A stretch of DNA of 64,000 bases from Mesorhizobium sp. NZP2298 (GTDB lineage Bacteria; Pseudomonadota; Alphaproteobacteria; Rhizobiales; Rhizobiaceae), in assembly GCF_013170825.1 (NCBI RefSeq), contig NZ_CP033365.1, forward strand, positions 4,786,001 to 4,850,000. The letters run 5' to 3'. Both the position numbers and the translations under genes were made by a program. The notes under the pieces are model-generated. The model ran no database searches, had not been told where the DNA came from, and worked only from the letters and a program-made list of their open reading frames with translations. The stretch's first letter is position 1, and every line of letters starts with the position of its first letter. Shown here one piece after another: positions 46,164 through 49,420 of the stretch.

Positions 46164-47417
46164 ATGGCACAGGAAGATACGCAACAAGGCGGCTACAACA
46201 TCCACTGGCGGCGCAATCTCGCCGTCTGTTTCGCCGGCTCGTTCAGCACGCTCATCGCCATGACGCTGCTGTTGCCTTTCCTGCCGCTTTATGTTGAACA
46301 GCTCGGCGCGCAAGGCCATGCGTCGATCGTGCAGTGGTCCGGCATCGCCTACGGCGCCACCTTCTTCGCCGCGGCCCTGGTCGCGCCATTGTGGGGACGG
46401 CTGGGCGACCGCTACGGCCGCAAGGTGATGCTGGTGCGTGCCAGCTTCGGCATGGCGATCTGCATGTCGCTGACGGGCATGGTCGAGACGGTCTGGCAAC
46501 TGGTGCTGCTGCGCCTGCTGATCGGGTTTGCCGGCGGCTATTCCTCGGGTTCGACCATATTGGTGGCCATGCAGACGCCCAAGGACCGCTCCGGCTGGGC
46601 GCTCGGCGTCCTGTCGGCGGGAATCACGGCAGGTTCGCTTGTCGGTCCCCTGCTCGGCGGTGCGCTGCCGCCGGTCATCGGCATTCGCGCCACCTTCCTG
46701 TTGTCCGGCGGCGTCATCTTCCTTGCCTTCCTGGCGACGACATTCCTCATCAAGGAGACCCAGCGCCCGAAGCCGGCCACGGCAGCGTCGGCGGCAAGGC
46801 CGAAAAGCGGCTGGTCGCAGATCCCGGACAAGCGCCCCGTCGTGGCCATGCTGACAACCGGCATGCTGCTCGCCTTCGCCACAATGTCGATCGAGCCGAT
46901 CATCACCGTCTACGTGCAGCAACTCATAGAGGACCAGAGCCGGGTGACGATGATCGCTGGCGTGGTGATGTCGGCGACGGCGCTAGGCACCATCCTGTCG
47001 GCATCCTGGCTTGGCAGGCTTGCGGATCGTGTCGGCCACTGGAATGTCGTTGTCGGAGCGCTGGCCGTATCGGCCCTGCTGCTTATCCCGCAGGCCTTCG
47101 TCAGCAATGGCTGGCAACTGATCGGCCTTCGCTTTCTGATGGGACTGGCGCTGGGTGGCCTGCTGCCCTGCATCACCAGCGTCATCCGCCACAACATCCC
47201 CGACGGCGTCGGTGGCAATGTGCTTGGGCTGGCCATCTCGGCGCAGTATGTCGGGCAGGTTGCGGGACCACTATCCGGTGGTTTCGTCGGCGGTCACTTC
47301 GGCATGCGCTCGGTGTTTCTCGCCACATCGGTGCTGATGGCCGGCGGTGCCGTCTACAACTGGATTGTCCAGTCGCGGCGCACACGGCATATGGCGTTGG
47401 AAGCGAGCGAGTCCTGA
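46164..47417 (+). CDS. MFS multidrug-type exporter
   Basis: 417-residue protein with twelve membrane helices in two halves. Motif A is clear after helix 2: APLWGRLGDRYGRKVMLVRA (about residues 74-93), and motif C-like GITAGSLVGPLLGGALPPVI in helix 5 points to the drug:H+ antiporter family (MdtG/TetA-like). Controlled in all likelihood by the divergent GntR regulator. Substrate unknown. The DUF423 gene follows 33 bp later. Confidence 0.86.
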   Translation: MAQEDTQQGGYNIHWRRNLAVCFAGSFSTLIAMTLLLPFLPLYVEQLGAQGHASIVQWSGIAYGATFFAAALVAPLWGRLGDRYGRKVMLVRASFGMAICMSLTGMVETVWQLVLLRLLIGFAGGYSSGSTILVAMQTPKDRSGWALGVLSAGITAGSLVGPLLGGALPPVIGIRATFLLSGGVIFLAFLATTFLIKETQRPKPATAASAARPKSGWSQIPDKRPVVAMLTTGMLLAFATMSIEPIITVYVQQLIEDQSRVTMIAGVVMSATALGTILSASWLGRLADRVGHWNVVVGALAVSALLLIPQAFVSNGWQLIGLRFLMGLALGGLLPCITSVIRHNIPDGVGGNVLGLAISAQYVGQVAGPLSGGFVGGHFGMRSVFLATSVLMAGGAVYNWIVQSRRTRHMALEASES

Positions 47418-47450: not shown

Positions 47451-47816
47451 ATGAATTCCTCCGAACCAACCGCCAGCCCTACCCTCGTGTTTGCCGGCGG
47501 TCTCGTCGGCGCGGCAGGCGTGGCGCTGTCAGCTGCCGCCGCGCATCTCGGCGGCGCCTTCACCGGCACGGCCGCGTCGTTCCTCTTGATGCACGCGCCT
47601 GTCTTCCTCGCCGTCGGCCTCACCGGCGCAAATCGCTTTCTGCGGATCGCCAGCGTCGCCTTGCTTGCCGGGCTCCTGCTTTTCGCGGGCGATCTACTTG
47701 CCCGCGATTTCCTGGGATCGAGGCTGTTTCCGATGTCGGCGCCGATCGGGGGCACCTTGCTCATCGCCGGCTGGCTGGGGATAGCGATCTCTGCCCTGGT
47801 ACGTCGACGTTCCTAA
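47451..47816 (+). CDS. DUF423 small membrane protein
   Basis: 121-residue protein with four predicted membrane helices and the DUF423 (YgdD) pattern: LVFAGGLVGAAGVALSAAAA at the N-terminus, LLMHAPVFLAVGL in the middle and SAPIGGTLLIAGWLGIAISA at the end. Function unknown. Likely the second gene of a transcript with the MFS exporter (33-bp gap). Confidence 0.82.
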   Translation: MNSSEPTASPTLVFAGGLVGAAGVALSAAAAHLGGAFTGTAASFLLMHAPVFLAVGLTGANRFLRIASVALLAGLLLFAGDLLARDFLGSRLFPMSAPIGGTLLIAGWLGIAISALVRRRS

Positions 47817-47833
47817 GGCCGAATCGGTCGGGA

Positions 47834-47983
47834 TCAATCCCCGGGACGGCCGGTGCGGATCCACAAATTGTGATTGCGCGAGGCCCGCTTCGTCAGGCGT
47901 CGCGCTTCCGGTCGCTCGGCGGCCGGAGCGATGCCCCAGTAGTTGCGATAAATGTCTTCAAACAAATGCTTGATGGGATGCAT
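47834..47983 (-). CDS. 49-residue tiny protein, paralog 1, with operator upstream
   Basis: ATG at 47983 is preceded by AGGGAG eight bases upstream. Product MHPIKHLFEDIYRNYWGIAP then a basic tail with WIRTGRPGD. The first 16 residues match the second tiny ORF at 48039-48182 (MHP..., LFEDIYRN-x-W), while the rest differs. No signal peptide or membrane segment. Operator TTGAATCGATCCAA lies 19 bp upstream of the start. I know of no family. The shared N-terminus, ribosome-binding sites and operators all argue for a real gene. Confidence 0.65.
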   Translation of the reverse strand: MHPIKHLFEDIYRNYWGIAPAAERPEARRLTKRASRNHNLWIRTGRPGD

Positions 47984-48001
47984 GATTTTTCTCCCTTCGG
48001 G

Positions 48002-48015
48002 TTGAATCGATCCAA
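48002..48015. promoter_or_regulatory. LacI-type operator A
   Basis: TTGAATCGATCCAA, one of three copies in 290 bp of a 14-bp palindrome with a central CG, as in LacI/GalR operators. It lies 19 bp upstream of the tiny gene 1 start, where it would block initiation. Confidence 0.75.
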
Positions 48016-48038
48016 TACATAGGCAAAAAACGCGGCGA

Positions 48039-48182
48039 TCAGCTTCGCTTACGCCCCACTAGGAAGCGAAGGTCGCGAATCCATGGGCTTGCCCTGCCCC
48101 GACGCCTGAAGCTGTTGGCGGCCGACCCAATACTCCAGTCGTTGCGATAGATGTCTTCGAACAGGTAATTGACGGGATGCAT
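48039..48182 (-). CDS. 47-residue tiny protein, paralog 2, with operator upstream
   Basis: ATG at 48182 preceded by GGGGAGG seven bases upstream, a near-ideal ribosome-binding site. Product MHPVNYLFEDIYRNDWSIGS, then a basic arginine-rich tail ending LVGRKRS. It shares MHP and LFEDIYRN-x-W with tiny protein 1. The N-terminus could form an amphipathic helix, the tail is cationic. Operator B (48225-48238) lies 43 bp upstream of the start. No known family. Divergent from the LacI-type regulator gene. Confidence 0.68.
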   Translation of the reverse strand: MHPVNYLFEDIYRNDWSIGSAANSFRRRGRASPWIRDLRFLVGRKRS

Positions 48183-48224
48183 GTCGCACCTCCCCTGAAA
48201 CACAGGCGGGCCAAACCCACCAAC

Positions 48225-48238
48225 TTGGATCGATTCAA
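48225..48238. promoter_or_regulatory. LacI-type operator B
   Basis: TTGGATCGATTCAA, the reverse complement of operators A and C, in the divergent region between tiny gene 2 and the regulator gene. Its centre is 49 bp from that of operator C, close to an integral number of helical turns. Confidence 0.75.
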
Positions 48239-48273
48239 GAATAGGTCTCCGGCAGTTCCCGGTCAAGCAAAAT

Positions 48274-48287
48274 TTGAATCGATCCAA
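48274..48287. promoter_or_regulatory. LacI-type operator C
   Basis: TTGAATCGATCCAA, 57 bp upstream of the regulator start codon, consistent with autoregulation. Confidence 0.75.
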
Positions 48288-48343
48288 CGAAAGTGCTAGA
48301 TGCAAATCCGGAACGTGCTAAATGCATGTCAGGAGGCACGCAC

Positions 48344-49420
48344 ATGGCGTCACTCACCGCAGGCAATCGAAGACCCGTCCGGCTGGCCGATATCGCCAAG
48401 GCCGCCGGTGTTTCGCACGGCACCGCATCCAATGTCTTCAGCCGCCCCGAGATCGTGCGCGAGGAAGTCCGCGAGCGGGTCAAGGCGGCCGCCGAGGCGA
48501 TGGGTTATGGCGGGCCGGATCCCAAGGGCCGATTGTTGCGGGCAGGCAAGGTCAACGCCATCGGCGTCGCCACCGCCGAACCCCTCTCCTACTTCTTCGA
48601 CGATCCTTTTGCGCGGGTCATGATGGCGAGCATCTCGCAGGCCTGCGATGCAACAGGAGCCGGCATTTCCCTGGTCTCGGCAGCCAACAACGAACAACTT
48701 GCCTGGAACATCCAGAGTGCCCTGGTCGACGGCTTCATCGTCTTCTGCATCGAAGGCGGCTCGCGGCTGGTGGAACTGGCACGCGAGCGCAAACTGCCCT
48801 TCGTGGCGCTCGACCTGGACTCCGAGGATGGGGCGGTCGCGGCGATCGGTGTCGACAACATCGCCGGCGCCAGCCTGGCGGCCCGCCATCTCACGGATCT
48901 CGGACATCGCCGCTTTGCCGTTCTGGCACTGCCTTTCGTCGACGGCAGGACGGGTCTCGTTTCACCCGAGCAGGTTCGCTCAGCGACCTATGCGGGCACG
49001 CGCGACCGGCTCACCGGCTATCTCCAGGAGCTTTCGCGGGTTGGCGTCGATACATCCACAGTGCCCGTCTACGAGACCGCCAACGACGCGGCCAGCACGA
49101 GAGAGGCACTCGAAACCATCTTCGCGGCCAAGGAGCCGCCCACTGCCATCCTGGCGATGTCGGACAAAATAGCCCTGGTGACGCTCGAATGGCTGAGCGC
49201 GCGCGAGTTCAGCGTCCCCAACGATGTTTCCGTCATCGGGTTCGACGGCGTTCCGGAGTCCGCCGTGTCCGAGCCGCCCTTGACCACGATCGCTCAGCCG
49301 ATAGCCGAAATGGGCCGCCTTGCCGTCAAGGCGATCCTGGAGAGCGACGGCAAGGTCAGCCGGCAGTTGCTGCCGGTCAAACTGGTTGTGCGGGCCTCGT
49401 CGGTTCCGCCGCGCGGCTGA
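48344..49420 (+). CDS. LacI-family transcriptional regulator
   Basis: 358-residue regulator. N-terminal LacI helix-turn-helix and hinge (VRLADIAKAAGVSHGTASNV, then FSRPEIVREEVRERVKAAAE, about residues 12-52). A periplasmic-binding-protein-like effector domain (about 65-350) includes VDGFIVFC, GVDNIAGASLAARHL, GHRRFAVLALP and DVSVIGFDGVPESAVSEPPL. ATG 48344 with AGGAGG upstream is favoured over in-frame ATGs further up. The effector is presumably a sugar or similar small molecule. Its most likely targets are its own gene and the two tiny ORFs, since all carry the same palindrome. Confidence 0.92.
   Translation: MASLTAGNRRPVRLADIAKAAGVSHGTASNVFSRPEIVREEVRERVKAAAEAMGYGGPDPKGRLLRAGKVNAIGVATAEPLSYFFDDPFARVMMASISQACDATGAGISLVSAANNEQLAWNIQSALVDGFIVFCIEGGSRLVELARERKLPFVALDLDSEDGAVAAIGVDNIAGASLAARHLTDLGHRRFAVLALPFVDGRTGLVSPEQVRSATYAGTRDRLTGYLQELSRVGVDTSTVPVYETANDAASTREALETIFAAKEPPTAILAMSDKIALVTLEWLSAREFSVPNDVSVIGFDGVPESAVSEPPLTTIAQPIAEMGRLAVKAILESDGKVSRQLLPVKLVVRASSVPPRG

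What the first reader, a model, noticed from the sequence alone, without database searches (positions are those of the whole stretch)
47834..49420. Compact LacI-type regulon with three identical-type operators and two tiny paralogous genes
TTGAATCGATCCAA occurs at 48002-48015 and 48274-48287, and its reverse complement at 48225-48238. Each copy sits upstream of a gene: tiny ORF 1 (19 bp), tiny ORF 2 (43 bp) and the LacI-type regulator (57 bp). The sequence is a near-perfect palindrome with a central CG, the hallmark of LacI/GalR operators. I see no transporter or catabolic enzyme in the set, unlike ordinary LacI loci, so the regulator seems dedicated to expressing two proteins below 50 residues. 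That is an unusual arrangement and could be a small-protein signalling or transporter-modulating system.
Basis: partly seen in the sequence, partly recalled or inferred. Interest (0 to 1): 0.8.

Follow-up and report, generated by a model that had tools for sequence, protein, structure and literature searches.

The report
LacI switch for two tiny proteins
In Mesorhizobium soil bacteria and their relatives, a gene switch of the sugar-sensing LacI type appears to control, at its own locus, only itself and one or two very small conserved proteins (47 and 49 residues here), an unusual and testable circuit whose purpose is unknown.

Summary
Three copies of TTGRATCGATYCAA lie where stated and are the only exact copies in the 7.34-Mb genome (0.03 expected). 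Both tiny genes are real: in 79 of 80 named loci an operator is followed within 80 bp by a tiny-gene start, and codons 4-18 give dN/dS 0.077 (ORF2 position) and 0.120 (ORF1 position) against 0.76-1.34 in the other frames. The LacI gene is in 112 of 119 genomes of the genus. The module recurs in six further genera. ORF2's promoter abuts one operator, so repression is well supported by sequence, though untested. The tiny proteins match no Pfam, NCBIfam or PHROG family. Locally the regulator is dedicated to them. In Mesorhizobium a one-mismatch site also lies inside the promoter of a distant MFS transporter gene, so "no transporter" may not hold; the evidence there is mixed. What the proteins do is unknown; I favour a helical core that binds a protein partner, by analogy with SgrT and DUF1127 proteins. 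New variant of a known kind.

The parts
48344..49420 (+). LacI-family regulator, 358 aa; recognition-helix motif AGVSHGTASNV
   Evidence: Pfam LacI 1.8e-10, Peripla_BP_3 9.8e-33; in 112 of 119 genus genomes at E<=1e-60
48039..48182 (-). tiny gene 2 (ORF2), 47 aa, MHPVNYLFEDIYRNDW..., tail PWIRDLRFLVGRKRS
   Evidence: anchored dN/dS 0.077 over codons 4-18, 72 unique sequences
47834..47983 (-). tiny gene 1 (ORF1), 49 aa, MHPIKHLFEDIYRNYWGIAPAAERPE...
   Evidence: anchored dN/dS 0.120 over codons 4-18, 58 unique sequences
48002..48015 (.). operator O1, 18 bp before ORF1
48225..48238 (.). operator O2, abutting (1 bp overlap) the -10 of the ORF2 promoter
48274..48287 (.). operator O3, 49 bp from O2, holding the proposed -35 of lacI
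   Evidence: in relatives 78 loci passed a 45-52 bp filter on O2-O3 spacing, 49 or 50 bp in 68 of them; of the 79 loci with operators, L170 lacks O3 within 2 mismatches
48238..48266 (-). ORF2 promoter TTGACC-17-TATTCT
   Evidence: in relatives the best match (8-10 of 12) falls at the same offset from O2 in 75 of 78 loci
48274..48302 (+). proposed lacI promoter: TTGAAT inside O3, 17 bp, TGC-TAGATG extended -10
   Evidence: my reading and of the conserved TG.TAgat after O3; the consensus scans did not single it out

Best explanation
This is an autoregulated LacI-type repressor module whose local output is one or two orphan, probably cytosolic proteins, mostly 42-55 residues (longer forms of 87-137 residues in a few relatives). 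Without its effector the regulator sits on O2 and O3 (and O1), blocking the ORF2 promoter and probably its own. A small ligand, probably sugar-like as for most characterised LacI proteins, releases it, and the tiny proteins and more regulator are made. Each tiny protein has a highly conserved N-terminal core (MHPxxxLFEDIYRNxWGI), probably an amphipathic helix, and a basic, more variable tail. I infer that the core docks on one protein partner, most likely a transporter or sensor of the same metabolite, and adjusts its activity. Shown by sequence: gene reality, linkage, operator conservation, promoter overlap. Inferred: repression, ligand class, helix, partner.
For: Operator exclusivity: 3 exact sites per 7.34 Mb, all local, reversed control 0; 65 of 71 genomes have exact sites. 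Linkage: 79 of 80 named loci have at least 2 operators (within 2 mismatches) and a tiny start beside LacI (the 80 are the best of 260 relatives found); all 18 tiny-bearing genomes have a LacI orthologue next door. Coding: dN/dS 0.077 and 0.120 against 0.76-1.34 in other frames. Promoter geometry: O2 abuts the -10 of a TTGACA-like promoter at the same offset in 75 of 78 loci. Core: AlphaFold helices 3-16 and 25-43 at low confidence; ORF1 hydrophobic moment 0.59, matched by 22 of 2000 shuffles. Tail mean net charge +5.4 (ORF1 position) and +6.5 (ORF2 position). Four genomes without LacI (G006, G013, G051, G096) keep the neighbouring MFS and DUF423 genes but have no tiny motif in the 2 kb or so read beyond them and no exact operator in the genome.
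Against: No binding, expression or ligand data. A one-mismatch site in an MFS promoter argues the regulon is not purely local in Mesorhizobium. No partner was found; the fold is low confidence (pLDDT 61.7, pTM 0.24) and amphipathicity is weaker for ORF2 (117 of 2000 shuffles as high) and for two relatives (105 and 241 of 2000). ORF1 has no clear promoter.
Confidence: 0.55

Rival explanations
1. The regulator is a wider transport regulator in Mesorhizobium: besides the tiny genes it represses a distant MFS transporter, and in some clades a second MFS gene and an AglR-like/ABC sugar-transport promoter. The tiny proteins are accessory members of a sugar-uptake regulon.
For: TTGAATCGATCTAA lies between TTGACT and TAATTT of the MFS gene at G000:C1:1437904; no LacI gene is seen among the ORFs of the 15 kb around it (by reading translations). 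Of 20 LacI+ Mesorhizobium genomes examined 19 have the site or a one-mismatch variant: G000; six; nine; G042 and G076; G085, where the variant TTGAATCGTTTCAA sits 20 bp off. I read the promoter in nine of them; the other ten rest on the same 14-mer. The twentieth, G003, has no such MFS gene at E<=1e-50. G042 keeps the site though its local operators are gone. In 4 of 4 LacI-minus genomes with the MFS gene (G006, G013, G051, G096) no site lies within 3 mismatches in the 230 bp read.
Against: LacI+ genomes of three other genera have the MFS gene without a close site (best 3 mismatches in G352, 5 in G361 and G260). G024 keeps the site though no LacI or tiny motif is seen at its locus; G074 and G068, whose LacI loci are missing or in assembly gaps, keep it too. 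Most of the orthologous promoters read carry some LacI-like palindrome (CTAAACCGATTTAG, ATAAAACGATTTAA), so another regulator may own it. The second-MFS and AglR-like sites are clade-limited and the former overlaps a start codon.
Confidence: 0.25
2. The tiny proteins act back on LacI itself, as an anti-repressor or co-repressor, making a closed circuit.
For: Tiny gene and regulator are adjacent in all 18 tiny-bearing genomes; no other locus in G000 matched the tiny profile at E<=0.001 (2 matches, 17 candidates scored).
Against: LacI survives without tiny genes in G042. No structural evidence of an interface.
Confidence: 0.12
3. The tiny-gene transcript is a dual-function small RNA like SgrS/SgrT, the RNA doing most of the work.
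For: Size and layout resemble SgrR-sgrS/sgrT (recalled; titles and abstract openings in the listing).
Against: The conserved signal is at the amino-acid level; Rfam gives one chance-level match, 16.9 bits against a gathering score of 75.9. RNA structure was not otherwise tested.
Confidence: 0.06
4. The ORFs are spurious and the palindromes are chance.
For: None found.
Confidence: 0.01

Closest known systems
Local LacI/GalR-family regulons (Ravcheev et al. 2014, PMC4052901; abstract and found passages seen)
   Same: Even palindrome with central CG, autoregulation, divergent target next to the regulator
   Different: The abstract gives nearly 90% of its LacI proteins as local regulators of sugar utilization; here no catabolic gene or transporter is in the local set
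SgrR-SgrS/SgrT of E. coli (titles and abstract openings in the listing; layout recalled)
   Same: Regulator beside a transcript for a protein under 50 aa that tunes sugar uptake
   Different: SgrR is not LacI type (recalled); SgrT is one protein within an sRNA; here there are usually two tandem paralogues, each with an operator; target unknown
DUF1127 small proteins of Agrobacterium (PMC12501420, title and abstract opening in the listing)
   Same: Alphaproteobacterial proteins under 50 aa reported to act by protein-protein contact
   Different: No Pfam match of any kind
PckR of rhizobia
   Same: LacI-family regulator with a similar motif, TNNAANCGNTT (quoted in PMC8877191, passage read)
   Different: PckR is a scattered central-carbon regulator (PMC4052901 passages); TTGGATCGATCCAA does not fit its motif

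Membership tests
LacI/GalR-family regulator | N-terminal LacI HTH plus periplasmic-binding-protein-like domain | tested here: met
   Pfam LacI, Peripla_BP_1 and Peripla_BP_3 above their cut-offs
LacI/GalR-family regulator | Even palindromic operator with central CG | tested here: met
   family norm from PMC4052901; binding itself not tested
Local sugar-utilization LacI regulon | Adjacent catabolic or transport operon under the operator | tested here: not met
   Exact operators precede only lacI and the tiny genes; neighbours are convergent DUF423 and MFS genes and an OpgC gene on the far side of lacI, none with an exact operator
DUF1127 small proteins | Match to the Pfam model | tested here: not met
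   0 Pfam families at E<=1 for both proteins
SgrS/SgrT dual-function RNA | Known RNA family match | tested here: not met
   No Rfam match at gathering score on 47600-48500; one chance-level hit
SgrS/SgrT dual-function RNA | Small protein inhibits a sugar transporter | not testable with these tools
   needs an uptake assay

The most novel reading that the evidence does not exclude
A LacI-type repressor has become the dedicated switch of a new family of small protein effectors: tandem paralogues with a highly conserved 18-residue docking helix that retune a transporter or sensor post-translationally, so that a metabolite signal is turned into a protein-contact signal rather than into catabolic enzymes.
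Probability: 0.35. Interest if true: 0.8.

Novelty: new variant of a known kind. Interest (0 to 1): 0.6.

Why it matters
LacI proteins are textbook sugar-gene switches. One whose conserved local output is only tiny, functionally unassigned proteins gives a genetically clean way into small-protein function: a single regulator, a known operator, a defined promoter and two paralogues, in nitrogen-fixing symbionts. It also shows how operator conservation can uncover small-protein families that family libraries miss.

Tried and rejected
Wider regulon: the four one-mismatch sites of G000 were read one by one. One lies in the 3' end of a mannitol-dehydrogenase-like gene (my reading) and is missing from 2 of 6 near relatives; I treat it as chance. 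The second-MFS site is absent from several LacI+ genomes and overlaps a start codon; 9 of the 13 loci gave no anchor, so that comparison is thin. The AglR-like site recurs in a subset only.

Operator/recognition-helix covariation: G260 has Arg for His in AGVS[H]GT and TTGAACCGATCCAA at its three sites, but single TTGAACCGATCCAA sites also occur with His regulators, so I give it no weight.

LacI paralogues at 40-47% identity were looked at for a ligand hint: seven stretches fetched, ORFs read in three (L309, L311, L313); no sugar operon seen; the other four (L310, L312, L314, L315) were not read. A solved-structure search gave only generic LacI relatives, and for the tiny profile three hits at E 1.6 or worse. 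The first unfiltered codon test picked wrong start codons and gave 0.47 and 0.20 in frame 0; one search replaced it by anchoring on the start TGCAYCC, which fixes M-H-P, so codons 1-3 are left out. One search used motif-filtered sequences and is biased; its values (0.055, 0.076) are not relied on. Relaxed selection on LacI in G042 was tested and not shown. A structure model was made for ORF1 only.

Full report
WHAT IS THERE. Two tiny genes on the minus strand (ORF2 48039-48182, ORF1 47834-47983) are divergent from a LacI-family gene (48344-49420, plus strand). The sequence TTGRATCGATYCAA lies before each of the three genes, at 48225, 48002 and 48274. Beyond them are a convergent DUF423 gene (47451-47816) and an MdtG-like MFS gene (46164-47417; below the NCBIfam cut-off) on one side and an OpgC gene on the opposite strand on the other. 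The exact-operator set is therefore lacI, ORF2 and ORF1.

IS IT MORE THAN CHANCE. The whole genome has 3 exact copies, all here, and 4 with one mismatch; the reversed-pattern control has none. An i.i.d. model expects 0.03 exact copies. Of 71 genus genomes 65 have exact copies, most often 3; in the 26 whose places are listed (the last partly), all are at the LacI locus but one.

ARE THE TINY GENES REAL. In a scan of named genomes with a LacI profile (260 relatives, best 80 kept), 79 of 80 loci have at least two operators within 2 mismatches upstream of LacI, and 79 of 80 have a tiny start (TGCAYCC) within 80 bp after an operator: 67 have two, 12 have one. The exception is M. composti (L143). 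With sequences chosen only by that anchor, codons 4-18 give dN/dS 0.077 (ORF2 position, 72 unique) and 0.120 (ORF1 position, 58 unique); the other two frames give 0.76 to 1.34. One ORF1 (L187) is out of frame and one ORF2 (G021) is cut by a stop. In the 30 best orthologue loci (the window's own included), 25 have three exact operators and 5 have two.

HOW FAR IT REACHES. A tiny-protein profile finds 18 of 394 sampled genomes of the family: 8 of the window's genus (its own genome included) and 10 in six other genera. In an order sample it finds 10 of 397, all in the same family. In a class sample it finds G000 and two matches broken by stops, which I discount (3 of 385). In all 18 genomes a LacI orthologue is next door; the ten from other genera have it at 58-72% identity with local operators. 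The LacI gene is in 112 of 119 genus genomes at E<=1e-60. Of the seven without, G074's locus falls at a contig end, and G024 and G068 are fragmented (690 and 1310 contigs); G006, G013, G051 and G096 keep the neighbouring MFS and DUF423 genes but show no LacI or tiny motif in the stretch read. Tiny proteins are longer in a few relatives: 87 residues in G416 and 130-137 in G054, G055 and G005.

HOW IT WORKS. In 78 loci that passed a 45-52 bp filter on O2-O3 spacing, the best promoter match for ORF2 (8-10 of 12, 16-17 bp spacer) falls at one offset from O2 in 75, with the -10 abutting O2, so a protein on O2 would block ORF2 transcription. O3 is followed by a conserved TGnTAgAT, which with TTGAAT inside O3 makes a 17-bp spaced promoter for lacI; this is my reading, and the consensus scans did not pick it. 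ORF1 has its own operator but no clear promoter. Direct autorepression is inferred from sequence. The effector is unknown. The tiny proteins share an N-terminal core (L7, F8, Y12, W16 at 96% or more at both positions; M1, H2 and P3 are fixed by the anchor) predicted as a helix at low confidence. The ORF2 family has its own conserved tail, about PWxRxLRFLVERKR, so the two paralogues are not redundant copies.

OTHER POSSIBLE TARGETS. TTGAATCGATCTAA (one mismatch) sits between the -35 and -10 of an MFS gene 3.4 Mb away. It or a one-mismatch variant is found in 19 of 20 LacI+ Mesorhizobium genomes examined (G000; six; nine; G042 and G076; G085, at a shifted position); I read the promoter in nine of them. 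The twentieth, G003, lacks the MFS gene. In 4 of 4 LacI-minus genomes the MFS promoter has no site within 3 mismatches. Against it: three LacI+ genomes of other genera lack a close site, and G024, where no LacI is seen at the locus, has it, as do G074 and G068 whose LacI status is open. I rate MFS as a plausible but unproven added target in Mesorhizobium. G042 (LacI kept, tiny genes and operators gone, MFS site kept) fits this.

COMPARISON. It is a LacI-family regulator by the features tested. It is not an ordinary local sugar regulon, since the adjacent metabolic operon is absent. It works most like SgrR-SgrT in outline (recalled, with abstract openings). The tiny proteins match no Pfam, NCBIfam or PHROG family, and the source names shown are 'hypothetical' or 'uncharacterized' protein (which list 30 of 30 and 120 of 352). 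Full-text searches for the two operator strings and for LFEDIYRN found no paper, and the listings of two topical searches (15 of 90 and 5 of 5 papers) show none on such a system; these cover only the open PMC library.

Noticed in passing
L005 (G000:C1:1437904): One-mismatch operator between -35 and -10 of an MFS gene, seen in 19 of 20 LacI+ Mesorhizobium genomes examined; candidate second target
   Followed up: yes
L004 (G000:C1:418630): TTGAATCGACCCAA beside an AAAGCGCTTT site (the published AglR motif) in the divergent promoter of a LacI-family gene and a sugar-binding-protein gene (aglR/aglE by recall), in a subset of relatives
   Followed up: partly
L007 (G000:C1:4096582): TTGGATCGATTCAT runs into the ATG of a second MFS gene (3-phenylpropionate-transporter-like, below cut-off) in a subset of relatives
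   Followed up: partly
L143, L301 (M. composti, G042): Tiny genes and operators are missing while the LacI gene is kept, next to DUF423
   Followed up: yes
L235, L242: TTCAATCGATTCAA in a conserved intergenic stretch, before what looks like a class I fructose-bisphosphate aldolase gene in L235 (my reading, no family search); fits the PckR motif quoted in PMC8877191
   Followed up: partly
L309, L311: A LacI paralogue (43-47% identity) in some Mesorhizobium is divergent from a conserved ~109-aa hypothetical gene, again no sugar operon seen
   Followed up: no
G019:C268:12598: One exact operator away from the LacI locus
   Followed up: no
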